Assembly (NCBI GenBank): GCA_022605955.1
Contig: JAKCOZ010000261.1
Coordinates: forward strand, 186,001-250,000
DNA length: 64,000 bases
Direction: 5' to 3'
Source of the DNA: Rallus limicola
Taxonomy: Eukaryota; Chordata; Aves; Gruiformes; Rallidae
The notes beneath the pieces were generated by a model, which searched no databases, had not been told where the DNA came from, and was given only the letters and a program-made list of their open reading frames with translations. Every line of letters starts with the position of its first letter. The stretch's first letter is position 1. The position numbers and the translations under genes are program-made. Shown in pieces: positions 1 to 60,043 of the stretch.

Positions 1-1000
1 GCATAGCTTGTCTGAAACCTCCTAACAGGACACACGAGCAGACCCTGTCACTTTGGCTCTCAGCCTTTTCCTTTGCCTGGAAAGAGGGAACATGCCTGGA
101 ACCTCCTACGGTGCTTTTCTCGGCCCTAGCAGACTGCAGTTCAAAGCATGCTAAACGTCCAGCAATAATTCCCAAAGTAAAGAAGCTAGGCCTGAAAGGC
201 ATAGCTTGTCTGAAACCTCCTAACAGGACACATGAGCAGACCCTATCACTTTGGCTCTCAGCCTTTTCCTTTGCCTGGAAAGAGGGAACATGCCTGGAAC
301 CTCCTACGGTGCTTTTCTCGGCCCTAGCAGACTGCAGTTCAAAACATGCTAAACGTCCAGCAATAACTCCCAAAGTAAAGAAGCTAGGCCTGAAAGGCAT
401 AGCTTGTCTGAAACCTCCTAACAGGACACATGAGCAGCCCCTGTCACTTTGGCTCTCAGCCTTTTCCTTTGCCTGGAAAGAGGGAACATGCCTGGAACCT
501 CCTACGGTGCTTTTCTCGGCCCTAGCAGACTGCAGTTCAAAACATGCTAAACGTCCAGCAATAACTCCCAAAGTAAAGAAGCTAGGCCTGAAAGGCATAG
601 CTTGTCTGAAACCTCCTAACAGGACACACGAGCAGCCCCTGTCACTTTGGCTCTCAGCCTTTTCCTTTGCCTGGAAAGAGGGAACATGCCTGGAACCTCC
701 TACGGTGCTTTTCTCAGCCCTAGCAGACTGCAGTTCAAAACATGCTAAACGTCCAGCAATAACTCCCAAAGTAAAGAAGCTAGGCCTGAAAGGCATAGCT
801 TGTCTGAAACCTCCAAACATGACACACGAGCAGACCCTGTCACTTTGGTTCTCAGCCTTTTCCTTTGCCTGGAAAGAGGGAACATGCCTGGAACCTCCTA
901 CGGTGCTTTTCTCGGCCCTATCAGACTGCAGTTCAAAACATGCTAAACGTCCAGCAATAACTCCCAAAGTAAAGAAGCTAGGCATGAAAGGCATAGCTTG
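1..1000. repeat. Block 0: last 5 monomers of a block starting upstream
   Basis: Five monomers plus about 10 bp. The first carries aataattccc at about 165 instead of aataactccc. The last has cctccaaacatgac (about 811) and ctatcagac (about 919). The same two-variant ending closes the blocks at 7189-8772 and 8820-11195, so these three block ends share a recent ancestor. Confidence 0.93.
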
Positions 1001-1069
1001 TCCTGTTAGGAGGTTTCAGACAAGCTAGGCCTGAAAGGCATAGCTTGTCTGAAACCTCCTAACAGGACA
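999..1069. repeat. Palindromic junction 1 (canonical, 47 bp insertion at 1001-1047)
   Basis: Reference example. The preceding monomer ends aggcatgaaaggcatagcttg-like sequence at 1000. Then come 21 bp that are the exact reverse complement of monomer sequence lying downstream, followed by a 26 bp direct copy of the sequence just upstream. The result is two perfect 23 bp arms (999-1021 and 1047-1069) around a 25 bp core that is itself a hairpin with one mismatch and a 3-base loop. It could form a cruciform. Monomer orientation is the same on both sides, so this is not an inversion breakpoint of the array. Confidence 0.97.
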
Positions 1070-4000
1070 CACGAGCAGACCCTGTCACTTTGGCTCTCAG
1101 CCTTTTCCTTTGCCTGGAAAGAGGGAACATGCCTGGAACCTCCTACGGTGCTTTTCTCGGCCCTAGCAGACTGCAATTCAAAACATGCTAAACGTCCAGC
1201 AATAACTCCCAAAGTAAAGAAGCTAGGCCTGAAAGGCATAGCTTGTCTGAAACCTCCTAACATGACACACGAGCAGCCCCTGTCACTTTGGTTCTCAGCC
1301 TTTTCCTTTGCCTGGAAAGAGGGAACATGCCTGGAACCTCCTACGGTGCTTTTCTCGGCCCTAGCAGACTGCAGTTCAAAACATGCTAAACGTCCAGCAA
1401 TAACTCCCAAAGTAAAGAAGCTAGGCCTGAAAGGCATAGCTTGTCTGAAACCTCCTAACATGACACACGAGCAGCCCCTGTCACTTTGGTTCTCAGCCTT
1501 TTCCTTTGCCTGGAAAGAGGGAACATGCCTGGAACCTCCTACGGTGCTTTTCTCGGCCCTAGCAGACTGCAGTTCAAAACATGCTAAACGTCCAGCAATA
1601 ACTCCCAAAGTAAAGAAGCTAGGCCTGAAAGGCATAGCTTGTCTGAAACCTCCTAACAGGACACACGAGCAGCCCCTGTCACTTTGGCTCTCAGCCTTTT
1701 CCTTTGCCTGGAAAGAGGGAACATGCCTGGAACCTCCTACGGTGCTTTTCTTGGCCCTAGCAGACTGCAGTTCAAAACATGCTAAACGTCCAGCAATAAC
1801 TCCCAAAGTAAAGAAGCTAGGCCTGAAAGGCATAGCTTGTCTGAAACCTCCTAACAGGACACACGAGCAGACCCTGTCACTTTGGCTCTCAGCCTTTTCC
1901 TTTGCCTGGAAAGAGGGAACATGCCTGGAACCTCCTACGGTGCTTTTCTCGGCCCTAGCAGACTGCAGTTCAAAACATGCTAAACGTCCAGCAATAACTC
2001 CCAAAGTAAAGAAGCTAGGCCTGAAAGGCATAGCTTGTCTGAAACCTCCTAACAGGACACACGAGCAGCCCCTGTCACTTTGGTTCTCAGCCTTTTCCTT
2101 TGCCTGGAAAGAGGGAACATGCCTGGAACCTCCTACGGTGCTTTTCTCGGCCCTAGCAGACTGCAGTTCAAAACATGCTAAACGTCCAGCAATAACTCCC
2201 AAAGTAAAGAAGCTAGGCCTGAAAGGCATAGCTTGTCTGAAACCTCCTAACAGGACACACGAGCAGCCCCTGTCACTTTGGCTCTCAGCCTTTTCCTTTG
2301 CCTGGAAAGAGGGAACATGCCTGGAACCTCCTACGGTGCTTTTCTCGGCCCTAGCAGACTGCAGTTCAAAACATGCTAAACGTCCAGCAATAACTCCCAA
2401 AGTAAAGAAGCTAGGCCTGAAAGGCATAGCTTGTCTGAAAGCTCCTAACAGGACACACGAGCAGCCCCTGTCACTTTGGCTCTCAGCCTTTTCCTTTGCC
2501 TGGAAAGAGGGAACATGCCTGGAACCTCCTACGGTGCTTTTCTCGGCCCTAGCAGACTGCAGTTCAAAACATGCTAAACGTCCAGCAATAACTCCCAAAG
2601 TAAAGAAGCTAGGCCTGAAAGGCATAGCTTGTCTGAAACCTCCTAACAGGACACACGAGCAGACCCTGTCACTTTGGCTCTCAGCCTTTTCCTTTGCCTG
2701 GAAAGAGGGAACATGCCTGGAACCTCCTACTGTGCTTTTCTCGGCCCTAGCAGACTGCAGTTCAAAACATGCTAAACGTCCAGCAATAACTCCCAAAGTA
2801 AAGAAGCTAGGCCTGAAAGGCATAGCTTGTCTGAAACCTCCTAACAGGACACACGAGCAGACCCTGTCACTTTGGCTCTCAGCCTTTTCCTTTGCCTGGA
2901 AAGAGGGAACATGCCTGGAACCTCCTACGGTGCTTTTCTCGGCCCTAGCAGACTGCAGTTCAAAACATGCTAAACGTCCAGCAATAACTCCCAAAGTAAA
3001 GAAGCTAGGCCTGAAAGGCATAGCTTGTCTGAAACCTCCTAACAGGACACACGAGCAGACCCTGTCACTTTGGCTCTCAGCCTTTTCCTTTGCCTGGAAA
3101 GAGGGAACATGCCTGGAACCTCCTACGGTGCTTTTCTCGGCCCTAGCAGACTGCAGTTCAAAACATGCTAAACGTCCAGCAATAACTCCCAAAGTAAAGA
3201 AGCTAGGCCTGAAAGGCATAGCTTGTCTGAAACCTCCTAACAGGACACACGAGCAGACCCTGTCACTTTGGCTCTCAGCCTTTTCCTTTGCCTGGAAAGA
3301 GGGAACATGCCTGGAACCTCCTACGGTGCTTTTCTCGGCCCTAGCAGACTGCAGTTCAAAACATGCTAAACGTCCAGCAATAACTCCCAAAGTAAAGAAG
3401 CTAGGCCTGAAAGGCATAGCTTGTCTGAAACCTCCTAACATGACACACGAGCAGCCCCTGTCACTTTGGTTCTCAGCCTTTTCCTTTGCCTGGAAAGAGG
3501 GAACATGCCTGGAACCTCCTACGGTGCTTTTCTCGGCCCTAGCAGACTGCAGTTCAAAACATGCTAAACGTCCAGCAATAACTCCCAAAGTAAAGAAGCT
3601 AGGCCTGAAAGGCATAGCTTGTCTGAAACCTCCTAACAGGACACACGAGCAGCCCCTGTCACTTTGGCTCTCAGCCTTTTCCTTTGCCTGGAAAGAGGGA
3701 ACATGCCTGGAACCTCCTACGGTGCTTTTCTCGGCCCTAGCAGACTGCAGTTCAAAACATGCTAAACGTCCAGCAATAACTCCCAAAGTAAAGAAGCTAG
3801 GCCTGAAAGGCATAGCTTGTCTGAAACCTCCTAACAGGACACACGAGCAGACCCTGTCACTTTGGCTCTCAGCCTTTTCCTTTGCCTGGAAAGAGGGAAC
3901 ATGCCTGGAACCTCCTACGGTGCTTTTCTCAGCCCTAGCAGACTGCAGTTCAAAACATGCTAAACGTCCAGCAATAACTCCCAAAGTAAAGAAGCTAGGC

Positions 4001-4215
4001 CTGAAAGGCATAGCTTGTCTGAAACCTCCTAACATGACACACGAGCAGCCCCTGTCACTTTGGTTCTCAGCCTTTTCCTTTGCCTGGAAAGAGGGAACAT
4101 GCCTGGAACCTCCTACGGTGCTTTTCTCGGCCCTAGCAGACTGCAGTTCAAAACATGCTAAACGTCCAGCAATAACTCCCAAAGTAAAGAAGCTAGGCAT
4201 GAAAGGCATAGCTTG
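1048..4215. repeat. Block 1: 16 monomers
   Basis: Exactly 3168 bp (16 x 198). The first monomer has gcaattc in place of the PstI site, the next two carry the catgacacacgagcagccc / ggttctcag haplotype, and the third gtgcttttct-phased copy after that has ttcttggccc near 1750. This opening order is repeated in the blocks at 8820 and 11243. A gaaagctcc variant lies near 2437 and ctactgtgc near 2728. Confidence 0.93.
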
Positions 4216-4250
4216 TCCTGTTAGGAGGTCTGAAACCTCCTAACAGGACA
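4214..4250. repeat. Palindromic junction 2, centre-deleted (13 bp insertion)
   Basis: Only tcctgttaggagg (4216-4228) is inserted; 34 bp of the usual 47 bp insertion, including the whole hairpin core copy, is missing. What remains is a perfect 15 bp inverted repeat (4214-4228 and 4236-4250) around a 7-base spacer. Centre loss is the typical decay path of long palindromes. It is the only junction of this length in the window. Confidence 0.95.
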
Positions 4251-5218
4251 CACGAGCAGACCCTGTCACTTTGGCTCTCAGCCTTTTCCTTTGCCTGGAA
4301 AGAGGGAACATGCCTGGAACCTCCTACGGTGCTTTTCTTGGCCCTAGCAGACTGCAGTTCAAAACATGCTAAACGTCCAGCAATAACTCCCAAAGTAAAG
4401 AAGCTAGGCCTGAAAGGCATAGCTTGTCTGAAACCTCCTAACAGGACACACGAGCAGCCCCTGTCACTTTGGCTCTCAGCCTTTTCCTTTGCCTGGAAAG
4501 AGGGAACATGCCTGGAACCTCCTACGGTGCTTTTCTCGGCCCTAGCAGACTGCAGTTCAAAACATGCTAAACGTCCAGCAATAACTCCCAAAGTAAAGAA
4601 GCTAGGCCTGAAAGGCATAGCTTGTCTGAAACCTCCTAACAGGACACACGAGCAGCCCCTGTCACTTTGGCTCTCAGCCTTTTCCTTTGCCTGGAAAGAG
4701 GGAACATGCCTGGAACCTCCTAAGGTGCTTTTCTCGGCCCTAGCAGACTGCAGTTCAAAACATGCTAAACGTCCAGCAATAACTCCCAAAGTAAAGAAGC
4801 TAGGCCTGAAAGGCATAGCTTGTCTGAAACCTCCTAACAGGACACACGAGCAGACCCTGTCACTTTGGCTCTCAGCCTTTTCCTTTGCCTGGAAAGAGGG
4901 AACATGCCTGGAACCTCCTACGGTGCTTTTCTCGGCCCTAGCAGACTGCAGTTCAAAACATGCTAAACGTCCAGCAATAACTCCCAAAGTAAAGAAGCTA
5001 GGCCTGAAAGGCATAGCTTGTCTGAAACCTCCTAACATGACACACGAGCAGCCCCTGTCACTTTGGTTCTCAGCCTTTTCCTTTGCCTGGAAAGAGGGAA
5101 CATGCCTGGAACCTCCTACGGTGCTTTTCTCGGCCCTAGCAGACTGCAGTTCAAAACATGCTAAACGTCCAGCAATAACTCCCAAAGTAAAGAAGCTAGG
5201 CATGAAAGGCATAGCTTG
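4229..5218. repeat. Block 2: 5 monomers
   Basis: 990 bp. The first monomer carries ttcttggccc (about 4336), a variant otherwise found in the fourth monomer of blocks 1, 7 and 8, which suggests this block was cut from the middle of such a block. A private ctaaggtgc variant sits near 4721. It ends with a catgac/ggttctcag monomer. Confidence 0.92.
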
Positions 5219-5287
5219 TCCTGTTAGGAGGTTTCAGACAAGCTAGGCCTGAAAGGCATAGCTTGTCTGAAACCTCCTAACAGGACA
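5217..5287. repeat. Palindromic junction 3 (canonical)
   Basis: 47 bp insertion at 5219-5265 with perfect arms. It opens the first of six cassettes in which two junctions are separated by a single monomer. Confidence 0.96.
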
Positions 5288-5463
5288 CACGAGCAGACCC
5301 TGTCACTTTGGCTCTCAGCCTTTTCCTTTGCCTGGAAAGAGGGAACATGCCTGGAACCTCCTACGGTGCTTTTCTCGGCCCTAGCAGACTGCAATTCAAA
5401 ACATGCTAAACGTCCAGCAAAAACTCCCAAAGTAAAGAAGCTAGGCATGAAAGGCAGAGCTTG
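5266..5463. repeat. Block 3: single monomer
   Basis: One monomer between two junctions. It has gcaattc, ccagcaaaaactcc and ggcagagcttg, three variants shared with the single monomers at 6944 and 14505, so these three are copies of one lineage. Confidence 0.93.
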
Positions 5464-5532
5464 TCCTGTTGGGAGGTTTCAGACAATCTAGGCCTGAAAG
5501 GCATAGCTTGTCTGAAAGCTCCTAACAGTACA
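5462..5532. repeat. Palindromic junction 4 (B type, imperfect)
   Basis: 47 bp insertion at 5464-5510. Differences from canonical: ttgggagg instead of ttaggagg, gacaatcta instead of gacaagcta, and a right arm with gaaagctcc and acagtaca. Several stem mismatches result, so hairpin strength should be lower. The caatcta and acagtaca marks define the B type, seen six times. Confidence 0.94.
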
Positions 5533-6896
5533 CACGAGCAGACCCTGTCACTTTGGCTCTCAGCCTTTTCCTTTGCCTGGAAAGAGGGAACATGCCTGGA
5601 ACCTCCTACGTTGCTTTTCTCGGCCCTAGCAGACTGCAATTCAAAACATGCTAAACGTCCAGCAATAACTCCCAAAGTAAAGAAGCTAGGCCTGAAAGGC
5701 ATAGCTTGTCTGAAACCTCCTAACAGGACACACGATCAAACCCTTTCACTTTGGCTCTCAGCTTTTTCCTTTGCTTGGAAAGAGGGAACATGCCTGGAAC
5801 CTCCTACGGTGCTTTTCTCGGCCCTAGCAGACTGCAGCTCAAAACATGCTAAACGTCCAGCAATAACTCCCAAAGTAAAGAAGCTAGGCCTGAAAGGCAT
5901 AGCTTGTCTGAAACCTCCTAACAGGACACCCGAGCAGACCCTGTCACTTTGGCTCTCAGCCTTTTCCTTTGCCTGGAAAGAGGGAACATGCCTGGAACCT
6001 CCTACGGTGCTTTTCTCGGCCCTAGCAGACTGCAGTTCAAAACATGCTAAACGTCCAGCAATAACTCCCAAAGTAAAGAAGCTAGGCCTGAAAGGCATAG
6101 CTTGTCTGAAACCTCCTAACAGGACACACGAGCAGCCCCTGTCACTTTGGCTCTCAGCCTTTTCCTTTGCCTGGAAAGAGGGAACATGCCTGGAACCTCC
6201 TACGGTGCTTTTCTCGGCCCTAGCAGACTGCAGTTCAAAACATGCTAAACGTCCAGCAATAACTCCCAAAGTAAAGAAGCTAGGCCTGAAAGGCATAGCT
6301 TGTCTGAAACCTCCTAACAGGACACACGAGCAGCCCCTGTCACTTTGGCTCTCAGCCTTTTCCTTTGCCTGGAAAGAGGGAACATGCCTGGAACCTCCTA
6401 CGGTGCTTTTCTCGGCCCTAGCAGACTGCAGTTCAAAACATGCTAAACGTCCAGCAATAACTCCCAAAGTAAAGAAGCTAGGCCTGAAAGGCATAGCTTG
6501 TCTGAAACCTCCTAACAGGACACACGAGCAGACCCTGTCACTTTGGCTCTCAGCCTTTTCCTTTGCCTGGAAAGAGGGAACATGCCTGGAACCTCCTACG
6601 GTGCTTTTCTCGGCCCTAGCAGACTGCAGTTCAAAACATGCTAAACGTCCAGCAATAACTCCCAAAGTAAAGAAGCTAGGCCTGAAAGGCATAGCTTGTC
6701 TGAAACCTCCTAACATGACACACGAGCAGCCCCTGTCACTTTGGTTCTCAGCCTTTTCCTTTGCCTGGAAAGAGGGAACATGCCTGGAACCTCCTACGGT
6801 GCTTTTCTCGGCCCTAGAAGACTGCAGTTCAAAACATTATAAACGTCCAGCAATAACTCCCAAAGTAAAGAAGCTAGGCATGAAAGGCATAGCTTG
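5511..6896. repeat. Block 4: 7 monomers
   Basis: 1386 bp. The first monomer has acagtacac and ctacgttgc. The second carries the diverged haplotype cgatcaaaccctttcac / agctttttcctttgcttgg near 5733. The same opening occurs at 7189 and 14750. The last monomer has ctagaagac and acattataaac, also found before the junction at 14458. Confidence 0.93.
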
Positions 6897-6965
6897 TCCT
6901 GTTAGAAGGTTTCAGACAAGCTAGGCCTGAAAGGCATAGCTTGTCTGAAAGCTCATAACAGGACA
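6895..6965. repeat. Palindromic junction 5 (imperfect arms)
   Basis: 47 bp insertion at 6897-6943. The left arm has ttagaagg and the right arm gaaagctcataacagg, so the stem has internal mismatches. First junction of the second single-monomer cassette. Confidence 0.95.
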
Positions 6966-7141
6966 CACGAGCAGACCCTGTCACTTTGGCTCTCAGCCTT
7001 TTCCTTTGCCTGGAAAGAGGGAACATGCCTGGAACCTCCTACGGTGCTTTTCTCGGCCCTAGCAGACTGCAATTCAAAACATGCTAAACGTCCAGCAAAA
7101 ACTCCCAAAGTAAAGAAGCTAGGCATGAAAGGCAGAGCTTG
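6944..7141. repeat. Block 5: single monomer
   Basis: One monomer with gaaagctcataac, gcaattc, gcaaaaactcc and ggcagagcttg. The whole stretch, with its two junctions, recurs 7561 bp downstream. Confidence 0.93.
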
Positions 7142-7210
7142 TCCTGTTAGGAGGTTTCAGACAATCTAGGCCTGAAAGGCATAGCTTGTCTGAAAGCTCC
7201 TAACAGTACA
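7140..7210. repeat. Palindromic junction 6 (B type)
   Basis: 47 bp insertion at 7142-7188 with caatcta on the left and gaaagctcc/acagtaca on the right. The left arm is otherwise canonical. Confidence 0.95.
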
Positions 7211-8772
7211 CACGAGCAGACCCTGTCACTTTGGCTCTCAGCCTTTTCCTTTGCCTGGAAAGAGGGAACATGCCTGGAACCTCCTACGTTGCTTTTCTCG
7301 GCCCTAGCAGACTGCAATTCAAAACATGCTAAACGTCCAGCAATAACTCCCAAAGTAAAGAAGCTAGGCCTGAAAGGCATAGCTTGTCTGAAACCTCCTA
7401 ACAGGACACACGATCAAACCCTTTCACTTTGGCTCTCAGCTTTTTCCTTTGCTTGGAAAGAGGGAACATGCCTGGAACCTCCTACGGTGCTTTTCTCGGC
7501 CCTAGCAGACTGCAGCTCAAAACATGCTAAACGTCCAGCAATAACTCCCAAAGTAAAGAAGCTAGGCCTGAAAGGCATAGCTTGTCTGAAACCTCCTAAC
7601 AGGACACCCGAGCAGACCCTGTCACTTTGGCTCTCAGCCTTTTCCTTTGCCTGGAAAGAGGGAACATGCCTGGAACCTCCTACGGTGCTTTTCTCGGCCC
7701 TAGCAGACTGCAGTTCAAAACATGCTAAACGTCCAGCAATAACTCCCAAAGTAAAGAAGCTAGGCCTGAAAGGCATAGCTTGTCTGAAACCTCCTAACAG
7801 GACACCCGAGCAGACCCTGTCACTTTGGCTCTCAGCCTTTTCCTTTGCCTGGAAAGAGGGAACATGCCTGGAACCTCCTACGGTGCTTTTCTCGGCCCTA
7901 GCAGACTGCAGTTCAAAACATGCTAAACGTCCAGCAATAACTCCCAAAGTAAAGAAGCTAGGCCTGAAAGGCATAGCTTGTCTGAAACCTCCTAACAGGA
8001 CACACGAGCAGCCCCTGTCACTTTGGCTCTCAGCCTTTTCCTTTGCCTGGAAAGAGGGAACATGCCTGGAACCTCCTACGGTGCTTTTCTCGGCCCTAGC
8101 AGACTGCAGTTCAAAACATGCTAAACGTCCAGCAATAACTCCCAAAGTAAAGAAGCTAGGCCTGAAAGGCATAGCTTGTCTGAAACCTCCTAACAGGACA
8201 CACGAGCAGCCCCTGTCACTTTGGCTCTCAGCCTTTTCCTTTGCCTGGAAAGAGGGAACATGCCTGGAACCTCCTACGGTGCTTTTCTCGGCCCTAGCAG
8301 ACTGCAGTTCAAAACATGCTAAACGTCCAGCAATAACTCCCAAAGTAAAGAAGCTAGGCCTGAAAGGCATAGCTTGTCTGAAACCTCCTAACAGGACACA
8401 CGAGCAGACCCTGTCACTTTGGCTCTCAGCCTTTTCCTTTGCCTGGAAAGAGGGAACATGCCTGGAACCTCCTACGGTGCTTTTCTCAGCCCTAGCAGAC
8501 TGCAGTTCAAAACATGCTAAACGTCCAGAAATAACTCCCAAAGTAAAGAAGCTAGGCCTGAAAGGCATAGCTTGTCTGAAACCTCCAAACATGACACACG
8601 AGCAGACCCTGTCACTTTGGTTCTCAGCCTTTTCCTTTGCCTGGAAAGAGGGAACATGCCTGGAACCTCCTACGGTGCTTTTCTCGGCCCTATCAGACTG
8701 CAGTTCAAAACATGCTAAACGTCCAGCAATAACTCCCAAAGTAAAGAAGCTAGGCATGAAAGGCATAGCTTG
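7189..8772. repeat. Block 6: 8 monomers
   Basis: 1584 bp. Its opening is nearly the same as block 4 (acagtacac, ctacgttgc, cgatcaaaccctttcac at about 7411) but with one extra acacccgag monomer, as expected from unequal exchange. It ends with cctccaaacatgac and ctatcagac. A private ccagaaataac lies near 8526. Confidence 0.93.
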
Positions 8773-8841
8773 TCCTGTTAGGAGGTTTCAGACAAGCTAG
8801 GCCTGAAAGGCATAGCTTGTCTGAAACCTCCTAACAGGACA
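8771..8841. repeat. Palindromic junction 7 (canonical)
   Basis: 47 bp insertion at 8773-8819, perfect 23 bp arms, aggcatg mark upstream. Confidence 0.97.
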
Positions 8842-11195: not shown

Positions 11196-11264
11196 TCCTG
11201 TTAGGAGGTTTCAGACAAGCTAGGCCTGAAAGGCATAGCTTGTCTGAAACCTCCTAACAGGACA
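11194..11264. repeat. Palindromic junction 8 (canonical)
   Basis: 47 bp insertion at 11196-11242 with perfect arms. It separates two 12-monomer blocks, so junction plus block forms a 2423 bp repeat. Confidence 0.97.
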
Positions 11265-46596: not shown

Positions 46597-47960
46597 CACG
46601 AGCAGACCCTGTCACTTTGGCTCTCAGCCTTTTCCTTTGCCTGGAAAGAGGGAACATGCCTGGAACCTCCTACGGTGCTTTTCTCGGCCCTAGCAGACTG
46701 CAGTTCAAAACATGCTAAACGTCCAGCAATAACTCCCAAAGTAAAGAAGCTAGGCCTGAAAGGCATAGCTTGTCTGAAACCTCCTAACAGGACACACGAG
46801 CAGACCCTGTCACTTTGGCTCTCAGCCTTTTCCTTTGCCTGGAAAGAGGGAACATGCCTTGAACCTCCTACGGTGCTTTTCTCGGCCCTAGCAGACTGCA
46901 GTTCAAAACATGCTAAACGTCCAGCAATAACTCCCAAAGTAAAGAAGCTAGGCCTGAAAGGCATAGCTTGTCTGAAACCTCCTAACAGGACACACGAGCA
47001 GACCCTGTCACTTTGGCTCTCAGCCTTTTCCTTTGCCTGGAAAGAGGGAACATGCCTGGAACCTCCTACGGTGCTTTTCTCGGCCCTAGCAGACTGCAGT
47101 TCAAAACATGCTAAACGTCCAGCAATAACTCCCAAAGTAAAGAAGCTAGGCCTGAAAGGCATAGCTTGTCTGAAACCTCCTAACAGGACACACGAGCAGC
47201 CCCTGTCACTTTGGCTCTCAGCCTTTTCCTTTGCCTGGAAAGAGGGAACATGCCTGGAACCTCCTACGGTGCTTTTCTCGGCCCTAGCAGACTGCAGTTC
47301 AAAACATGCTAAACGTCCAGCAATAACTCCCAAAGTAAAGAAGCTAGGCCTGAAAGGCATAGCTTGTCTGAAACCTCCTAACAGGACACATGAGCAGACC
47401 CTGTCACTTTGGCTCTCAGCCTTTTCCTTTGCCTGGAAAGAGGGAACATGCCTGGAACCTCCTACGGTGCTTTTCTCGGCCCTAGCAGACTGCAGTTCAA
47501 AACATGCTAAACGTCCAGCAATAACTCCCAAAGTAAAGAAGCTAGGCCTGAAAGGCATAGCTTGTCTGAAACCTCCTAACAGGACACACGAGCAGCCCCT
47601 GTCACTTTGGCTCTCAGCCTTTTCCTTTGCCTGGAAAGAGGGAACATGCCTGGAACCTCCTACGGTGCTTTTCTCGGCCCTAGCAGACTGCAGTTCAAAA
47701 CATGCTAAACGTCCAGCAATAACTCCCAAAGTAAAGAAGCTAGGCCTGAAAGGCATAGCTTGTCTGAAACCTCCTAACAGGACACACGAGCAGACCCTGT
47801 CACTTTGGCTCTCAGCCTTTTCCTTTGCCTGGAAAGAGGGAACATGCCTGGAACCTCCTACGGTGCTTTTCTCGGCCCTAGCAGACTGCAGTTCAAAACA
47901 TGCTAAACGTCCAACAATAACTCCCAAAGTAAAGAAGCTAGGCATGAAAGGCATAGCTTG
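46575..47960. repeat. Block 27: 7 monomers
   Basis: 1386 bp of ordinary monomers. Marks: atgccttgaacc near 46855 and gtccaacaataac near 47911 in the last copy. Confidence 0.93.
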
Positions 47961-48029
47961 TCCTGTTAGGAGGTTTCAGACAAGCTAGGCCTGAAAGGCA
48001 TAGCTTGTCTGAAACCTCCTAACAGGACA
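47959..48029. repeat. Palindromic junction 28 (canonical)
   Basis: 47 bp insertion at 47961-48007, perfect arms. Confidence 0.97.
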
Positions 48030-51000: not shown

Positions 51001-51968
51001 ACGAGCAAACCCTTTCACTTTGGCTCTCAGCTTTTTCCTTTGCTTGGAAAGAGGGAACATGCCTGGAACCTCCTACGGTGCTTTTCTCGGCCCTAGCAGA
51101 CTGCAGCTCAAAACATGCTAAACGTCCAGCAATAACTCCCAAAGTAAAGAAGCTAGGCCTGAAAGGCATAGCTTGTCTGAAACCTCCTAAAAGGACACCC
51201 GAGCAGACCCTGTCACTTTGGCTCTCAGCCTTTTCCTTTGCCTGGAAAGAGGGAACATGCCTGGAACCTCCTATGGTTCTTTTCTCGGCCCTAGCAGACT
51301 GCAGTTCAAAACATGCTAAACGTCCAGCAATAACTCCCAAAGTAAAGAAGCTAGGCCTGAAAGGCATAGCTTGTCTGAAACCTCCTAACAGGACACACGA
51401 GCAGCCCCTGTCACTTTGGCTCTCAGCCTTTTCCTTTGCCTGGAAAGAGGGAACATGCCTGGAACCTCCTACGGTGCTTTTCTCGGCCCTAGCAGACTGC
51501 AGTTCAAAACATGCTAAACGTCCAGCAATAACTCCCAAAGTAAAGAAGCTAGGCCTGAAAGGCGTAGCTTGTCTGAAACCTCCTAACAGGACACACGAGC
51601 AGACCCTGTCACTTTGGCTCTCAGCCTTTTCCTTTGCCTGGAAAGAGGGAACATGCCTGGAACCTCCTACGGTGCTTTTCTCGGCCCTAGCAGACTGCAG
51701 TTCAAAACATGCTAAACGTCCAGCAATAACTCCCAAAGTAAAGAAGCTAGGCCTGAAAGGCATAGCTTGTCTGAAACCTCCTAACATGACACACGAGCAG
51801 CCCCTGTCACTTTGGTTCTCAGCCTTTTCCTTTGCCTGGAAAGAGGGAACATGCCTGGAACCTCCTACGGTGCTTTTCTCGGCCCTAGAAGACTGCAGTT
51901 CAAAACATGCTAAACGTCCAGCAATAACTCCCAAAGTAAAGAAGCTAGGCATGAAAAGGCATAGCTTG
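48008..51968. repeat. Block 28: 20 monomers with a duplicated 8-monomer unit, +1 bp
   Basis: 3961 bp. An 8-monomer unit is present twice in tandem: gcaatttgaaac at 49321 and 50905, and gagcagcacc near 48627 and 50211, each 1584 bp apart. The last monomer has ctagaagac and gaaaagg, with an extra A near 51955. Confidence 0.92.
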
Positions 51969-52037
51969 TCCTGTTAGGAGGTTTCAGACAAGCTAGGCGT
52001 GAAAGGCATAGCTTGTCTGAAAGCTCCTAACAGGACA
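51967..52037. repeat. Palindromic junction 29
   Basis: 47 bp insertion at 51969-52015. The core has aggcgtg and the right arm gaaagctcc. It opens the fourth single-monomer cassette. Confidence 0.95.
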
Positions 52038-52213
52038 CACGAGCAGACCCTGTCACTTTGGCTCTCAGCCTTTTCCTTTGCCTGGAAAGAGGGAACATGC
52101 CTGGAACCTCCTACGGTGCTTTTCTCGGCCCTAGCAGACTGCAATTCAAAACATGCTAAACGTCCAGCAATAACTCCCAAAGTAAAGAAGCTAGGCATGA
52201 AAGGCATAGCTTG
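52016..52213. repeat. Block 29: single monomer
   Basis: One monomer with gcaattc but ordinary gcaataactcc and ggcatagcttg, which separates it from the three single monomers at 5266, 6944 and 14505. Confidence 0.93.
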
Positions 52214-52282
52214 TCCTGTTAGGAGGTTTCAGACAATCTAGGCCTGAAAGGCATAGCTTGTCTGAAAGCTCCTAACAGTACA
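52212..52282. repeat. Palindromic junction 30 (B type)
   Basis: 47 bp insertion at 52214-52260 with caatcta and acagtaca marks. Confidence 0.95.
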
Positions 52283-55200
52283 CACGAGCAGACCCTGTCA
52301 CTTTGGCTCTCAGCCTTTTCCTTTGCCTGGAAAGAGGGAACATGCCTGGAACCTCCTACGGTGCTTTTCTCGGCCCTAGCAGACTGCAATTCAAAACATG
52401 CTAAACGTCCAGCAATAACTCCCAAAGTAAAGAAGCTAGGCCTGAAAGGCATAGCTTGTCTGAAACCTCCTAACAGGACACACGAGCAAACCCTTTCACT
52501 TTGGCTCTCAGCTTTTTCCTTTGCTTGGAAAGAGGGAACATGCCTGGAACCTCCTACGGTGCTTTTCTCGGCCCTAGCAGACTGCAGCTCAAAACATGCT
52601 AAACGTCCAGCAATAACTCCCAAAGTAAAGAAGCTAGGCCTGAAAGGCATAGCTTGTCTGAAACCTCCTAACAGGACACCCGAGCAGACCCTGTCACTTT
52701 GGCTCTCAGCCTTTTCCTTTGCCTGGAAAGAGGGAACATGCCTGGAACCTCCTACGGTGCTTTTCTCGGCCCTAGCAGACTGCAGTTCAAAACATGCTAA
52801 ACGTCCAGCAATAACTCCCAAAGTAAAGAAGCTAGGCCTGAAAGGCATAGCTTGTCTGAAACCTCCTAACAGGACACCCGAGCAGACCCTGTCACTTTGG
52901 CTCTCAGCCTTTTCCTTTGCCTGGAAAGAGGGAACATGCCTGGAACCTCCTACGGTGCTTTTCTCGGCCCTAGCAGACTGCAGTTCAAAACATGCTAAAC
53001 GTCCAGCAATAACTCCCAAAGTAAAGAAGCTAGGCCTGAAAGGCATAGCTTGTCTGAAACCTCCTAACAGGACACACGAGCAGCCCCTGTCACTTTGGCT
53101 CTCAGCCTTTTCCTTTGCCTGGAAAGAGGGAACATGCCTGGAACCTCCTACGGTGCTTTTCTCGGCCCTAGCAGACTGCAGTTCAAAACATGCTAAACGT
53201 CCAGCAATAACTCCCAAAGTAAAGAAGCTAGGCCTGAAAGGCATAGCTTGTCTGAAACCTCCTAACAGGACACACGAGCAGCCCCTGTCACTTTGGCTCT
53301 CAGCCTTTTCCTTTGCCTGGAAAGAGGGAACATGCCTGGAACCTCCTACGGTGCTTTTCTCGGCCCTAGCAGACTGCAATTTGAAACATGCTAAACGTCC
53401 AGCAATAACTCCCAAAGTAAAGATGCTAGGCCTGAAAGGCATAGCTTGTCTGAAACCTCCTAACAGGACACACGAGCAAACCCTTTCACTTTGGCTCTCA
53501 GCTTTTTCCTTTGCTTGGAAAGAGGGAACATGCCTGGAACCTCCTACGGTGCTTTTCTCGGCCCTAGCAGACTGCAGCTCAAAACATGCTAAACGTCCAG
53601 CAATAACTCCCAAAGTAAAGAAGCTAGGCCTGAAAGGCATAGCTTGTCTGAAACCTCCTAAAAGGACACCCGAGCAGACCCTGTCACTTTGGCTCTCAGC
53701 CTTTTCCTTTGCCTGGAAAGAGGGAACATGCCTGGAACCTCCTACGGTGCTTTTCTCGGGCCTAGCAGACTGCAGTTCAAAACATGCTAAACGTCCAGCA
53801 ATAACTCCCAAAGTAAAGAAGCTAGGCCTGAAAGGCATAGCTTGTCTGAAACCTCCTAACAGGACACACGAGCAGCCCCTGTCACTTTGGTTCTCAGCCT
53901 TTTCCTTTGCCTGGAAAGAGGGAACATGCCTGGAACCTCCTACGGTGCTTTTCTCGGCCCTCGCAGACTGCAGTTCAAAACATGCTAAACGTCCAGCAAT
54001 AACTCCCAAAGTAAAGAAGCTAGGCCTGAAAGGCATAGCTTGTCTGAAACCTCCTAACAGGACACACGAGCAGACCCTGTCACTTTGGCTCTCAGCCTTT
54101 TCCTTTGCCTGGAAAGAGGGAACATGCCTGGAACCTCCTACGGTGCTTTTCTCGGCCCTAGCAGACTGCAATTTGAAACATGCTAAACGTCCAGCAATAA
54201 CTCCCAAAGTAAAGATGCTAGGCCTGAAAGGCATAGCTTGTCTGAAACCTCCTAACAGGACACACGAGCAAACCCTTTCACTTTGGCTCTCAGCTTTTTC
54301 CTTTGCTTGGAAAGAGGGAACATGCCTGGAACCTCCTACGGTGCTTTTCTCGGCCCTAGCAGACTGCAGCTCAAAACATGCTAAACGTCCAGCAATAACT
54401 CCCAAAGTAAAGAAGCTAGGCCTGAAAGGCATAGCTTGTCTGAAACCTCCTAAAAGGACACCCGAGCAGACCCTGTCACTTTGGCTCTCAGCCTTTTCCT
54501 TTGCCTGGAAAGAGGGAACATGCCTGGAACCTCCTACGGTGCTTTTCTCGGCCCTAGCAGACTGCAGTTCAAAACATGCTAAACGTCCAGCAATAACTCC
54601 CAAAGTAAAGAAGCTAGGCCTGAAAGGCATAGCTTGTCTGAAACCTCCTAACAGGACACACGAGCAGACCCTGTCACTTTGGCTCTCAGCCTTTTCCTTT
54701 GCCTGGAAAGAGGGAACATGCCTGGAACCTCCTACGGTGCTTTTCTCGGCCCTAGCAGACTGCAGTTCAAAACATGCTAAACGTCCAGCAATAACTCCCA
54801 AAGTAAAGAAGCTAGGCCTGAAAGGCATAGCTTGTCTGAAACCTCCTAACAGGACATACGAGCAGCCCCTGTCACTTTGACTCTCAGCCTTTTCCTTTGC
54901 CTGGAAAGAGGGAACATGCCTGGAACCTCCTACGGTGCTTTTCTCGGCCCTAGCAGACTGCAGTTCAAAACATGCTAAACGTCCAGCAATAACTCCCAAA
55001 GTAAAGAAGCTAGGCCTGAAAGGCATAGCTTGTCTGAAACCTCCTAACAGGACACATGAGCAGACCCTGTCACTTTGGCTCTCAGCCTTTTCCTTTGCCT
55101 GGAAAGAGGGAACATGCCTGGAACCTCCTACGGTGCTTTTCTCGGCCCTAGCAGACTGCAGTTCAAAACATGCTAAACGTCCAGCAATAACTCCCAAAGT

Positions 55201-55626
55201 AAAGAAGCTAGGCCTGAAAGGCATAGCTTGTCTGAAACCTCCTAACAGGACACACGAGCAGCCCCTGTCACTTTGGCTCTCAGCCTTTTCCTTTGCCTGG
55301 AAAGAGGGAACATGCCTGGAACCTCCTACGGTGCTTTTCTCGGCCCTAGCAGACTGCAGTTCAAAACATGCTAAACGTCCAGCAATAACTCCCAAAGTAA
55401 AGAAGCTAGGCCTGAAAGGCATAGCTTGTCTGAAACCTCCTAACAGGACACACGAGCAGACCCTGTCACTTTGGCTCTCAGCCTTTTCCTTTGCCTGGAA
55501 AGAGGGAACATGCCTGGAACCTCCTACGGTGCTTTTCTCGGCCCTAGCAGACTGCAGTTCAAAACATGCTAAACGTCCAACAATAACTCCCAAAGTAAAG
55601 AAGCTAGGCATGAAAGGCATAGCTTG
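52261..55626. repeat. Block 30: 17 monomers
   Basis: 3366 bp. It starts with acagtacac and then a diverged cgagcaaaccctttcac monomer. gcaatttgaaac occurs near 53377 and 54169 (4 monomers apart). ctcgggcc lies near 53755 and tttgactctc near 54876. It ends with gtccaacaataac. Confidence 0.92.
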
Positions 55627-55695
55627 TCCTGTTAGGAGGTTTCAGACAAGCTAGGCCTGAAAGGCATAGCTTGTCTGAAACCTCCTAACAGGACA
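55625..55695. repeat. Palindromic junction 31 (canonical)
   Basis: 47 bp insertion at 55627-55673, perfect arms. Confidence 0.97.
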
Positions 55696-58446
55696 CACGA
55701 GCAGACCCTGTCACTTTGGCTCTCAGCCTTTTCCTTTGCCTGGAAAGAGGGAACATGCCTGGAACCTCCTACGGTGCTTTTCTCGGCCCTAGCAGACTGC
55801 AGTTCAAAACATGCTAAACGTCCAGCAATAACTCCCAAAGTAAAGAAGCTAGGCCTGAAAGGCATAGCTTGTCTGAAACCTCCTAACAGGACACACGAGC
55901 AGACCCTGTCACTTTGGCTCTCAGCCTTTTCCTTTGCCTGGAAAGAGGGAACATGCCTGGAACCTCCTACGGTGCTTTTCTCGGCCCTAGCAGACTGCAG
56001 TTCAAAACATGCTAAACGTCCAGCAATAACTCCCAAAGTAAAGAAGCTAGGCCTGAAAGGCATAGCTTGTCTGAAACCTCCTAACAGGACACCCGAGCAG
56101 ACCCTGTCACTTTGGCTCTCAGCCTTTTCCTTTGCCTGGAAAGAGGGAACATGCCTGGAACCTCCTACGGTGCTTTTCTCGGCCCTAGCAGACTGCAGTT
56201 CAAAACATGCTAAACGTCCAGCAATAACTCCCAAAGTAAAGAAGCTAGGCCTGAAAGGCATAGCTTGTCTGAAACCTCCTAACAGGACACACGAGCAGCC
56301 CCTGTCACTTTGGCTCTCAGCCTTTTCCTTTGCCTGGAAAGAGGGAACATGCCTGGAACCTCCTACGGTGCTTTTCTCGGCCCTAGCAGACTGCAGTTCA
56401 AAACATGCTAAACGTCCAGCAATAACTCCCAAAGTAAAGAAGCTAGGCATGAAAGGCATAGCTTGTCTGAAACCTCCTAACAGGACACCCGAGCAGACCC
56501 TGTCACTTTGGCTCTCAGCCTTTTCCTTTGCCTGGAAAGAGGGAACATGCCTGGAACCTCCTACGGTGCTTTTCTCGGCCCTAGCAGACTGCAGTTCAAA
56601 ACATGCTAAACGTCCAGCAATAACTCCCAAAGTAAAGAAGCTAGGCCTGAAAGGCATAGCTTGTCTGAAACCTCCTAACAGGACACATGAGCAGCACCTG
56701 TCACTTTGGCTCTCAGCCTTTTCCTTTGCCTGGAAAGAGGGAACATGCCTGGAACCTCCTACGGTGCTTTTCTCGGCCCTAGCAGACTGCAGTTCAAAAC
56801 ATGCTAAACGTCCAGCAATAACTCCCAAAGTAAAGAAGCTAGGCCTGAAAGGCATAGCTTGTCTGAAACCTCCTAACAGGACACACGAGCAGCCCCTGTC
56901 ACTTTGGCTCTCAGCCTTTTCCTTTGCCTGGAAAGAGGGAACATGCCTGGAACCTCCTACGGTGCTTTTCTCGGCCCTAGCAGACTGCAGTTCAAAACAT
57001 GCTAAACGTCCAGCAATAACTCCCAAAGTAAAGAAGCTAGGCCTGAAAGGCATAGCTTGTCTGAAACCTCCTAACAGGACACAAGAGCAGCCCCTGTCAC
57101 TTTGGTTCTCAGCCTTTTCCTTTGCCTGGAAAGAGGGAACATGCCTGGAACCTCCTACGGTGCTTTTCTCGGCCCTCGCAGACTGCAGTTCAAAACATGC
57201 TAAACGTCCAGCAATAACTCCCAAAGTAAAGAAGCTAGGCCTGAAAGGCATAGCTTGTCTGAAACCTCCTAACAGGACACACGAGCAGACCCTGTCACTT
57301 TGGCTCTCAGCCTTTTCCTTTGCCTGGAAAGAGGGAACATGCCTGGAACCTCCTACGGTGCTTTTCTCGGCCCTAGCAGACTGCAATTTGAAACATGCTA
57401 AACGTCCAGCAATAACTCCCAAAGTAAAGATGCTAGGCCTGAAAGGCATAGCTTGTCTGAAACCTCCTAACAGGACACACGAGCAAACCCTTTCACTTTG
57501 GCTCTCAGCTTTTTCCTTTGCTTGGAGAGAGGGAACATGCCTGGAACCTCCTACGGTGCTTTTCTCGGCCCTAGCAGACTGCAGCTCAAAACATGCTAAA
57601 CGTCCAGCAATAACTCCCAAAGTAAAGAAGCTAGGCCTGAAAGGCATAGCTTGTCTGAAACCTCCTAACAGGACACACGAGCAGACCCTGTCACTTTGGC
57701 TCTCAGCCTTTTCCTTTGCCTGGAAAGAGGGAACATGCCTGGAACCTCCTACGGTGCTTTTCTCGGCCCTAGCAGACTGCAGTTCAAAACATGCTAAACG
57801 TCCAGCAATAACTCCCAAAGTAAAGAAGCTAGGCCTGAAAGGCATAGCTTGTCTGAAACCTCCTAACAGGACACACGAGCAGCCCCTGTCACTTTGGCTC
57901 TCAGCCTTTTCCTTTGCCTGGAAAGAGGGAACATGCCTGGAACCTCCTACGGTGCTTTTCTCGGCCCTAGCAGACTGCAGTTCAAAACATGCTAAACGTC
58001 CAGCAATAACTCCCAAAGTAAAGAAGCTAGGCCTGAAAGGCATAGCTTGTCTGAAACCTCCTAACAGGACACACGAGCAGACCCTGTCACTTTGGCTCTC
58101 AGCCTTTTCCTTTGCCTGGAAAGAGGGAACATGCCTGGAACCTCCTACGGTGCTTTTCTCGGCCCTAGCAGACTGCAGTTCAAAACATGCTAAACGTCCA
58201 GCAATAACTCCCAAAGTAAAGAAGCTAGGCCTGAAAGGCATAGCTTGTCTGAAACCTCCTAACATGACACACGAGCAGCCCCTGTCACTTTGGTTCTCAG
58301 CCTTTTCCTTTGCCTGGAAAGAGGGAACATGCCTGGAACCTCCTACGGTGCTTTTCTCGGCCCTAGAAGACTGCAGTTCAAAACATGCTAAACGTCCAGC
58401 AATAACTCCCAAAGTAAAGAAGCTAGGCATGAAAAGGCATAGCTTG
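55674..58446. repeat. Block 31: 14 monomers, +1 bp
   Basis: 2773 bp. An interior aggcatg without a junction is near 56448. acaagagcag near 57081 and ttggagagaggg near 57523 are private. The last monomer has ctagaagac and gaaaagg, as in block 28. Confidence 0.92.
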
Positions 58447-58515
58447 TCCTGTTAGGAGGTTTCAGACAAGCTAGGCGTTAAAGGCATAGCTTGTCTGAAA
58501 GCTCCTAACAGGACA
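58445..58515. repeat. Palindromic junction 32
   Basis: 47 bp insertion at 58447-58493. The core has aggcgttaaagg and the right arm gaaagctcc. It opens the fifth cassette. Confidence 0.95.
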
Positions 58516-58691
58516 CACGAGCAGACCCTGTCACTTTGGCTCTCAGCCTTTTCCTTTGCCTGGAAAGAGGGAACATGCCTGGAACCTCCTACGGTGCTTT
58601 TCTCGGCCCTAGCAGACTGCAATTCAAAACATGCTAAACGTCCAGCAATAACTCCCAAAGTAAAGAAGCTAGGCATGAAAGGCATAGCTTG
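58494..58691. repeat. Block 32: single monomer
   Basis: One monomer, nearly the same as 52016-52213. Confidence 0.93.
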
Positions 58692-58760
58692 TCCTGTTAG
58701 GAGGTTTCAGACAATCTAGGCCTGAAAGGCATAGCTTGTCTGAAAGCTCCTAACAGTACA
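58690..58760. repeat. Palindromic junction 33 (B type)
   Basis: 47 bp insertion at 58692-58738 with caatcta and acagtaca. Confidence 0.95.
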
Positions 58761-59729
58761 CACGAGCAGACCCTGTCACTTTGGCTCTCAGCCTTTTCCT
58801 TTGCCTGGAAAGAGGGAACATGCCTGGAACCTCCTACGGTGCTTTTCTCGGCCCTCGCAGACTGCAGTTCAAAACATGCTAAACGTCCAGCAATAACTCC
58901 CAAAGTAAAGAAGCTAGGCCTGAAAGGCATAGCTTGTCTGAAACCTCCTAACAGGACACACGAGCAGACCCTGTCACTTTGGCTCTCAGCCTTTTCCTTT
59001 GCCTGGAAAGAGGGAACATGCCTGGAACCTCCTACGGTGCTTTTCTCGGCCCGAGCAGACTGCAATTTGAAACATGCTAAACGTCCAGCAATAACTCCCA
59101 AAGTAAAGATGCTAGGCCTGAAAGGCATAGCTTGTCTGAAACCTCCTAACAGGACACACGAGCAGCCCCTGTCACTTTGGCTCTCAGCCTTTTCCTTTGC
59201 CTGGAAAGAGGGAACATGCCTGGAACCTCCTACGGTGCTTTTCTCGGCCCTAGCAGACTGCAGTTCAAAACATGCTAAACGTCCAGCAATAACTCCCAAA
59301 GTAAAGAAGCTAGGCCTGAAAGGCATAGCTTGTCTGAAACCTTCTAACAGGACACACGAGCAGCCCCTGTCACTTTGGCTCTCAGCCTTTTCCTTTGCCT
59401 GGAAAGAGGGAACATGCCTGGAACCTCCTACGGTGCTTTTCTCGGCCCTAGCAGACTGCAGTTCAAAACATGCTAAACGTCCAGCAATAACTCCCAAAGT
59501 AAAGAAGCTAGGCCTGAAAGGCATAGCTTGTCTGAAACCTCCTAACATGACACACGAGCAGCCCCTGTCACTTTGGTTCTCAGCCTTTTCCTTTGCCTGG
59601 AAAGAGGGAACATGCCTGGAACCTCCTACGGTGCTTTTCTCGGCCCTAGAAGACTGCAGTTCAAAACATGCTAAACGTCCAGCAATAACTCCCAAAGTAA
59701 AGAAGCTAGGCATGAAAAGGCATAGCTTG
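58739..59729. repeat. Block 33: 5 monomers, +1 bp
   Basis: 991 bp. Near 59051 it has cggcccgagcag, and gaaaccttc near 59336. The gcaatttgaaac monomer here is not followed by the usual diverged monomer, so part of that haplotype was lost. It ends with ctagaagac and gaaaagg. Confidence 0.92.
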
Positions 59730-59798
59730 TCCTGTTAGGAGGTTTCAGACAAGCTAGGCGTGAAAGGCATAGCTTGTCTGAAAGCTCCTAACAGGACA
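59728..59798. repeat. Palindromic junction 34
   Basis: 47 bp insertion at 59730-59776 with aggcgtg in the core and gaaagctcc in the right arm, as at 51967. It opens the sixth cassette. Confidence 0.95.
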
Positions 59799-59974
59799 CA
59801 CGAGCAGACCCTGTCACTTTGGCTCTCAGCCTTTTCCTTTGCCTGGAAAGAGGGAACATGCCTGGAACCTCCTACGGTGCTTTTCTCGGCCCTAGCAGAC
59901 TGCAATTCAAAACATGCTAAACGTCCAGCAATAACTCCCAAAGTAAAGAAGCTAGGCATGAAAGGCATAGTTTG
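59777..59974. repeat. Block 34: single monomer
   Basis: One monomer like 52016 and 58494, but ending atagtttg. Confidence 0.93.
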
Positions 59975-60043
59975 TCCTGTTAGGAGGTTTCAGACAATCT
60001 AGGCCTGAAAGGCATAGCTTGTCTGAAAGCTCCTAACAGTACA
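59973..60043. repeat. Palindromic junction 35 (B type)
   Basis: 47 bp insertion at 59975-60021, caatcta and acagtaca. The next monomer has cgagaagacc near 60046. Confidence 0.95.

What the first reader, a model, noticed from the sequence alone, without database searches (positions are those of the whole stretch)
999..60043. 35 palindromic junctions, all inserted at the same base of the monomer
Each junction adds 47 bp (13 bp once) after atagcttg and builds a 71 bp palindrome with 23 bp arms. Monomer orientation does not change across them. Spacing is always a whole number of monomers but otherwise irregular (1 to 29). This is a second repeated element embedded in the satellite, not explained by simple tandem duplication, and could act as a cruciform-forming or protein-binding site. 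Dyad-symmetric, non-B DNA has been proposed to matter at centromeres lacking CENP-B boxes; a role here is inference.
Basis: partly seen in the sequence, partly recalled or inferred. Interest (0 to 1): 0.85.

Follow-up and report, generated by a model that had tools for sequence, protein, structure and literature searches.

The report
Template-switch palindrome amplified in satellite DNA
A copying slip once folded a piece of a 198-base satellite repeat back on itself, the resulting hairpin-shaped insertion was then multiplied with the satellite, and a few copies show the scars expected if the hairpin folds or misleads DNA copying.

Summary
In detail: 35 junctions among 314 head-to-tail 198-bp monomers, always at the same monomer base, 34 with the full 47-bp insert and one with 13 bp. 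The arms are 29 bp, not 23 (29 + 13-bp spacer + 29 = 71), perfect in 21 of 35. The interpretation needs changing. The insert is not a second element: every base comes from the monomer, and one two-jump template switch (4-bp and 6-bp microhomologies) builds it exactly. It most likely arose once and was multiplied with its neighbours: an upstream SNP marks 34 of 35 junction monomers against 7 of 279 plain ones, and block duplications defined without the junctions carry them at matching places more often than chance (10 pairs, about 1.4 expected; 7 pairs discordant). The palindrome then behaves like a mutational hairpin: two copies have an inverted spacer, one of them the tandem-duplicate partner of an unflipped copy, and the 13-bp junction is a deletion of the hairpin tip. 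Nothing supports a maintained function: 8 arm substitutions are uncompensated and diversity is not clearly reduced. A centromere role is untested; species and genome-wide counts could not be obtained. Verdict: a real new instance of a known mutational mechanism, unusually well documented by in-array copies.

The parts
1..64000 (+). 198-bp satellite array, 314 monomers analysed (partial ones at both ends left out), head to tail; 198-bp segments average 98.8% identity to consensus
999..1069 (.). junction palindrome 1, perfect 29-bp arms, ordinary spacer
4214..4250 (.). junction palindrome 2: 13-bp insert, remnant with perfect 16-bp arms after a 34-bp deletion of the hairpin tip
5217..5287 (.). 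junction palindrome 3, perfect arms (first of a doublet)
5462..5532 (.). junction palindrome 4, 4 arm mismatches
6895..6965 (.). junction palindrome 5, 3 arm mismatches
7140..7210 (.). junction palindrome 6, 3 arm mismatches
8771..8841 (.). junction palindrome 7, perfect arms
11194..11264 (.). junction palindrome 8, perfect arms; in a 15-monomer block duplicated 12 monomers apart with no. 7
13617..13687 (.). junction palindrome 9, 1 arm mismatch
14456..14526 (.). junction palindrome 10, 2 arm mismatches
14701..14771 (.). junction palindrome 11, 3 arm mismatches
16529..16599 (.). junction palindrome 12, perfect arms, C174A lineage
17764..17834 (.). junction palindrome 13, perfect arms, C174A lineage
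18801..18871 (.). junction palindrome 14, perfect arms, SPACER INVERTED, C174A lineage
20633..20703 (.). junction palindrome 15, perfect arms, C174A lineage
26421..26491 (.). junction palindrome 16, perfect arms
27260..27330 (.). junction palindrome 17, perfect arms
28099..28169 (.). junction palindrome 18, perfect arms
28542..28612 (.). junction palindrome 19, perfect arms; the only one without the upstream C124A SNP
30753..30823 (.). junction palindrome 20, perfect arms
32582..32652 (.). junction palindrome 21, perfect arms
33223..33293 (.). junction palindrome 22, perfect arms
34062..34132 (.). junction palindrome 23, perfect arms
35495..35565 (.). junction palindrome 24, 1 arm mismatch
41086..41156 (.). 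junction palindrome 25, perfect arms, ordinary spacer; duplicate partner of no. 26
43905..43975 (.). junction palindrome 26, perfect arms, SPACER INVERTED; tandem-duplicate partner (14 monomers on) of no. 25
46526..46596 (.). junction palindrome 27, perfect arms
47959..48029 (.). junction palindrome 28, perfect arms
51967..52037 (.). junction palindrome 29, 1 arm mismatch
52212..52282 (.). junction palindrome 30, 3 arm mismatches
55625..55695 (.). junction palindrome 31, perfect arms
58445..58515 (.). junction palindrome 32, 1 arm mismatch
58690..58760 (.). junction palindrome 33, 3 arm mismatches
59728..59798 (.). junction palindrome 34, 1 arm mismatch
59973..60043 (.). junction palindrome 35, 3 arm mismatches

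Best explanation
The junction is the product of one template-switch mutation. While copying one monomer near ATAGCTTG, the polymerase jumped, at a 4-bp microhomology (TGTC), onto the complementary strand about 20 bp ahead, copied backwards over the start of the next monomer, and returned 20-26 bp behind its starting point at a 6-bp microhomology (AAGCTA, half of the monomer's own AAGCTA...TAGCTT quasi-palindrome). This leaves a 47-bp insert and a 71-bp palindrome (shown: the sequence is rebuilt exactly; inferred: the polymerase mechanism). One such insert, linked to an upstream C-to-A SNP, then multiplied with its neighbours through the unequal exchange, conversion and block duplication that homogenise satellites (shown as shared haplotypes and duplicated blocks; the exchange process itself is inferred). 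The palindrome has since been mutationally active: most likely twice its spacer inverted between intact arms, and once the hairpin tip was deleted (shown as sequence states; hairpin, cruciform or a second template switch as cause is inferred). No selected function is needed to explain it.
For:: a 4-point switch on the consensus reproduces the ordinary insert exactly; the 35 equivalent solutions are 5 x 7 placements, that is 4 bp and 6 bp of microhomology; the flipped form is also reproduced. C124A in 34 of 35 junction monomers against 7 of 279 plain (Fisher 1.8e-37), and C174A in 4 of 35 against 0 of 279, a junction-only sub-lineage. One search, blocks found without junction state or column 124: the nine blocks above the maximum of 20 shuffles (12) hold 130 monomer pairs, 10 both with junction, 7 one only, 113 neither; about 1.4 'both' expected (my arithmetic; blocks overlap, so pairs are not all independent). 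Spacer inverted at 18801 and 43905; 43905 and 41086 have identical monomers at -1, 0 and +1 within a 15-monomer block differing at 10 positions in all; the 13-bp junction is the full palindrome minus 34 bp of the tip, 2-bp microhomology; 3 of 4 rearrangements of 10 bp or more lie in palindromes that are 3.9% of the window (p 2.3e-4). Control: with the inserts taken out, reversing any 6-60 bp in the monomers with 3 or more differences gains at most 2 matches (9 monomers, one shared site), so no other comparable inversion is seen; flips 2 of 34 with long arms against 0 of 279 plain monomers (p 0.011).
Against: The upstream copy has C124A in 34 of 35 junctions but the copy inside the insert in none; a switch returning to the very same template strand would copy it, so either the SNP came afterwards or the return was to another monomer or sister chromatid. 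One junction (28542) lacks C124A and has a plain-like downstream SNP (A172C), so a second origin or a conversion is possible. Seven plain monomers carry C124A without the insert (losses, recombinants or precursors). Seven discordant pairs in the duplicated blocks show gains, losses or register errors. Clustering of related junctions along the array is weak (Mantel rho 0.11, 58 of 2000 permutations as high). The two flips could be one flip plus a short conversion tract. The rearrangement statistics rest on four events and were tested after being seen.
Confidence: 0.85

Rival explanations
1. The monomer's quasi-palindrome is a hot spot at which the same template switch happens again and again, so the 35 junctions are many independent events of identical outcome.
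For: All junctions share one site set by the microhomologies; one junction (28542) lacks the linked SNP; template switching at inverted repeats is reported to recur (PMC8604942, passages).
Against: 34 of 35 share C124A, found in 7 of 279 plain monomers; a junction-only sub-lineage (C174A 4 of 35, 0 of 279) and junctions at matching places in block duplications (10 of 130 pairs, 7 discordant). Independent events should hit monomers in proportion to their haplotypes.
Confidence: 0.07
2. The palindrome is kept because it does something at the centromere or in heterochromatin, such as a cruciform that recruits a protein (for instance HJURP or cohesin) where CENP-B boxes are missing.
For: Strong predicted fold (-39.2 kcal/mol); 35 of 314 monomers carry it; no CENP-B box beyond chance (best site 3 mismatches of 9; 196 of 200 shuffled monomers do as well); dyad symmetries are proposed to matter in some centromeres (PMC9070824, passages).
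Against: 13 of 35 have arm mismatches and all 8 distinct arm substitutions are uncompensated. Distinct variants per column are 0.128 in the insert (6 in 47) against 0.083 outside the palindrome in the same monomers (14, C124A left out, over 169 columns) and 0.173 for 35 random plain monomers (mean of 500 draws), so diversity is not clearly reduced. Spacing is irregular, variance 50 against 64 for random placement. Nothing shows that this array is a centromere.
Confidence: 0.06
3. The junctions are an assembly or library artefact, such as fold-back reads.
For: Palindromes are a known source of sequencing artefacts (recalled).
Against: The inserts carry inherited substitutions, sub-lineages and linked SNPs, and the array orientation does not reverse; an artefact would not track haplotypes over 60 kb.
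Confidence: 0.02

Closest known systems
Four-point template-switch mutations (Loytynoja and Goldman, recalled; Monttinen and Loytynoja 2022, PMC8794818, abstract and outline seen)
   Same: A short reverse-complement copy made in one event creates a perfect hairpin stem; the insert is solved exactly by four switch points.
   Different: Here the product sits in a satellite and is present 35 times in this window, so the later life of one event can be followed.
Spacer inversion between short inverted repeats by template switching in yeast (PMC8604942, passages seen)
   Same: Arms stay perfect while the spacer is reversed; [quoted passage not shown] recurrence is reported.
   Different: Arms of 29 bp and a 13-bp spacer in a satellite, against spacers changed by 2-5 substitutions in yeast coding genes; arm homogenisation, reported there, is not seen in the junctions here (0 of 8 arm substitutions).
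Minute inversions at hairpin loops of chloroplast DNA (described in PMC3123225, passages seen)
   Same: Loop inverted between palindromic arms, recurrently at one site.
   Different: Satellite array, not plastid; the same paper found avian nuclear microinversion hot spots not tied to stem-loops.
Satellites with dyad symmetry, such as Tribolium madens macro-dyads (PMC13081366, passages seen)
   Same: Inverted repeats within satellite arrays that could form hairpins or cruciforms.
   Different: There whole subarrays (kb) or ~300-bp halves are inverted; here 29-bp arms with array orientation unchanged.
Indel-marked monomer variants spread through higher-order repeat duplication, as in alpha satellite (recalled)
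   Same: Multi-monomer blocks share variants and duplicate together.
   Different: No single regular higher-order unit; block offsets differ (12, 14, 32, 37, 38, 50 and others).

Membership tests
Template-switch mutation product | Insert fully explained as a reverse-complement copy of adjacent sequence with two switch pairs | tested here: met
   exact on the consensus
Template-switch mutation product | Microhomology at the switch points | tested here: met
   4 bp and 6 bp of placement ambiguity
Template-switch mutation product | Homologous sites without the insert are at hand for comparison | tested here: met
   279 plain monomers in the same array; polarity is inferred from the majority state, no outgroup was available
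Template-switch mutation product | Re-copied template shows the template's own variants | tested here: inconclusive
   upstream C124A in 34 of 35, internal copy in none
Hairpin-loop (spacer) inversion | Spacer reversed, arms unchanged, relative to a close homologue | tested here: met
   43905 against 41086; 18801 against 16529, 17764, 20633
Hairpin-loop (spacer) inversion | Inversion independent in different lineages | tested here: inconclusive
   two backgrounds (C174A and not); a conversion tract limited to the palindrome cannot be excluded
Functional centromeric dyad or cruciform site | Compensatory change or reduced diversity in the arms | tested here: not met
Functional centromeric dyad or cruciform site | Occupancy by CENP-A or structure-binding protein; extrusion in vivo | not testable with these tools
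   sequence only
CENP-B box satellite | NTTCGNNNNANNCGGGN (motif recalled) | tested here: not met
   best 3 mismatches of 9 in the consensus, matched by 196 of 200 shuffles
Transposed or foreign element | Sequence not derived from the host monomer | tested here: not met

The most novel reading that the evidence does not exclude
The palindrome drives its own spread: when it folds or stalls replication it breaks or switches templates more often than plain monomers, so unequal exchange starts there and junction-bearing blocks are copied preferentially, making a mutation-born hairpin a selfish recombination hot spot of the satellite. The observed flips and tip deletion would be by-products of the same activity.
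Probability: 0.12. Interest if true: 0.75.

Novelty: new member of a known kind. Interest (0 to 1): 0.4.

Why it matters
Template-switch hairpins are usually inferred one at a time by comparing genomes. Here one event is held in 35 related copies next to 279 unmutated monomers in a single array, so the later behaviour of a new 29-bp-arm hairpin (arm decay, spacer flips, tip deletion) can be read directly. It is a natural assay for hairpin or cruciform activity inside a satellite and a clean marker for how satellite blocks spread. If the palindrome turned out to bias exchange, it would offer a sequence cause for satellite turnover.

Tried and rejected
Rejected: a second element embedded in the satellite (all bases come from the monomer); a reversal of array orientation; a CENP-B-box substitute read from sequence; a fixed higher-order repeat with one junction per unit (spacing 1 to 29, block offsets differ); arm homogenisation by conversion (0 of 8 distinct arm substitutions matched in the partner arm).

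Led nowhere: naming the species. Three exact fragments of 27-29 bases gave 0 matches, two in viral contigs and one in genome contigs; diverged relatives would be missed by such exact scans. A two-monomer query gave only chance-level short matches in phages and plasmids (best E-values 0.4 and 1). Six monomer fragments gave 0 papers. Searches for a 198-bp satellite (4 papers, all listed; 303 papers, 15 listed; listings only) offered no title that I could match; the manatee satellite paper (PMC8421680, abstract) has about 684-bp monomers. Searches on template switching, palindromes or inverted duplications with satellites (45 papers, 15 listed; 85, 15 listed; 32, 12 listed; 37, 10 listed) showed no title on a template-switch-born satellite variant; that covers only the listed part and is not proof of absence. 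One search (minute inversions) gave the avian paper.

Dropped or corrected: the first fuzzy decomposition found only 283 anchors and 25 junctions because of its matching mode; it was replaced. One search counted C124A by exact string (6 of 277 plain); the aligned count used here is 7 of 279. Block search penalised unlike junction state and so leaned towards concordance; one search repeats it without junction state or column 124, and its counts are the ones used. The 183-bp monomer was aligned with gaps and kept among the 279 plain.
Full report
What is there. The window is one head-to-tail array. A sliding comparison placed 314 anchors, mostly 198 bp apart, and the 198-bp segments average 98.8% identity to their consensus; 67 bases before the first anchor and the last 160 bases are partial monomers and were left out. 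Thirty-five monomers are longer: 30 of 245 bp, 3 of 246, 1 of 244 and 1 of 211. The extra sequence follows the same monomer base each time, after ATAGCTTG in 31, AGAGCTTG in 3 and ATAGTTTG in 1. The 244 and 246 lengths are due to one-base indels outside the insert, so 34 inserts are 47 bp and one is 13 bp. No reverse-orientation anchor was found. Spacings are 1 to 29 monomers with variance 50 against 64 for random placement. Arms are perfect in 21 of 35, have 1-4 mismatches in 13, and the 13-bp junction has perfect 16-bp arms. Outside junctions the window holds one site with an inverted repeat of at least 10 bp and a spacer of at most 40.

How it arose. The insert contains no foreign base. A four-point template switch applied to the consensus gives the ordinary insert exactly, with 35 equivalent placements, 5 for the first jump and 7 for the return, that is microhomologies of 4 bp (TGTC) and 6 bp (AAGCTA). 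The return site is one half of a quasi-palindrome already in the monomer (AAGCTA GGCCTGAAAGGCA TAGCTT; the exact 25-mer occurs 258 times in the window, copies inside inserts included). That a polymerase did this is inference from established template-switch models. One detail does not fit the simplest version: the upstream copy carries C124A in 34 of 35 junctions and the copy inside the insert in none, so the SNP came later or the return went to another monomer or sister chromatid.

How it spread. With consensus columns numbered from 0 at TTCCTTTGCC, a C-to-A change at column 124, just upstream of the insertion point (before column 141), is in 34 of 35 junction monomers and 7 of 279 plain ones (Fisher 1.8e-37). 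C174A, downstream of the insertion point, is in 4 of 35 and 0 of 279. Junctions fall into haplotype groups (G61T, C62A, C174A, G94A), and six pairs of junctions in adjacent monomers recur as blocks. A three-base change (G126T A127G A128G) occurs in four plain monomers, each directly after a junction, another mark of shared descent. Looking for duplicated blocks without using junction state or column 124, nine blocks exceed the maximum of 20 order-shuffled controls (12); among their 130 monomer pairs 10 have a junction in both, 7 in one and 113 in neither, with about 1.4 'both' expected by independence (my arithmetic; the blocks overlap, so pairs are not all independent). Five of the nine blocks have only concordant junctions. 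The 7 discordant pairs, the 7 plain monomers with C124A and the one junction without it (28542) show loss, recombination, register ambiguity or, less likely, another origin. Clustering of related junctions along the array is weak (rho 0.11, 58 of 2000 permutations as high).

What it has done since. Two junctions, 18801 and 43905, have the spacer reversed between perfect arms. The second lies in a 15-monomer block duplicated 14 monomers apart (10 differences in all) whose partner junction, 41086, is unflipped while the monomers at -1, 0 and +1 are identical in both apart from the insert. The first belongs to the C174A group whose three other members are unflipped. Two independent flips are the simplest reading; one flip plus a short conversion tract is not excluded. 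The 13-bp junction is the palindrome without 34 bp of its tip. Of four rearrangements of 10 bp or more that I counted, three are these and one is a 15-bp deletion in a plain monomer; palindromes are 3.9% of the sequence (p 2.3e-4). As a control, reversing any 6-60 bp stretch in the monomers with three or more differences (inserts taken out) gained at most 2 matches, in 9 monomers at one shared site, so no other comparable inversion was missed there. Plain monomers carry the same spacer between 6-bp arms and show 0 flips in 279 against 2 in 34 (p 0.011). The numbers are small and were tested after being seen.

Function. Single-strand DNA folding predicts -39.2 kcal/mol for the palindrome, -37.9 for the flipped form, -17.7 for the remnant and -11.0 for the best 71-mer of the consensus monomer. 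Yet the arms decay: 8 distinct arm substitutions (4 in the inserted arm, 4 in the monomer arm), none matched by the partner. Distinct variants per column are 0.128 in the insert (6 in 47), 0.083 outside the palindrome of the same monomers (14, C124A left out, over 169 columns) and 0.173 for 35 random plain monomers over 198 columns (mean of 500 draws). There is no CENP-B box beyond chance. So a selected role is neither needed nor supported, although not excluded. CpG observed/expected is 0.33, fitting a methylated genome such as a vertebrate or plant (inference); the species remains unknown and nothing here shows that the array is centromeric.

Comparison with print. Template switching that makes reverse-complement repeats and perfect hairpins in one event is described in PMC8794818 (abstract and outline). 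Spacer inversion between perfect arms, its recurrence, and its restriction to arms above 9 bp in yeast are in PMC8604942 (passages). Loop inversions at chloroplast palindromes are described in PMC3123225 (passages), which also reports avian microinversion hot spots without stem-loops. Dyad symmetry as a possible centromere feature is discussed in PMC9070824 (passages), which finds it enriched only at the Y among D. melanogaster centromeres. Large satellite dyads are in PMC13081366 (passages). The mechanism is therefore known; this instance, with its copies kept side by side, is new to me, and the listed titles (capped lists) showed none describing the same.

Noticed in passing
60788-60812: One plain monomer has its AAGCTA...TAGCTT quasi-palindrome corrected to a perfect 11-bp-arm, 3-bp-spacer palindrome (A to C), the only such site found; it looks like arm homogenisation but a chance substitution gives the same.
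   Followed up: partly
15203, 15401, 24896, 34960, 39165, 40155, 56325 (monomer starts): Seven plain monomers carry the junction-linked C124A SNP without the insert; they may be precise losses between the direct repeats that flank the left arm, recombinants or precursors.
   Followed up: partly
5217-5532, 6895-7210, 14456-14771, 51967-52282, 58445-58760, 59728-60043: Six junction doublets in adjacent monomers: the second copy of each shares CAATCTAGG, C148G and G159T (6 of 6) and has 3-4 arm mismatches; the first copy shares C62A and C148G in 5 of 6.
   Followed up: partly
16635, 17870, 20739, 30859 (monomer starts): Four plain monomers, each directly after a junction, share a three-base change (TGAAA to TTGGA) in the quasi-palindrome loop; it may be another multi-base mutation of the same kind, not analysed.
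   Followed up: no
1-64000: The consensus monomer is CpG-poor (observed/expected 0.33); distinct variants in plain monomers are transitions in 7 of 12 at CpG columns against 41 of 98 elsewhere, as in a methylated genome.
   Followed up: partly
about 29837-30020: One plain monomer has a 15-bp deletion between GGAA and TTCTCGG, the only length change of 10 bp or more outside the junctions.
   Followed up: no
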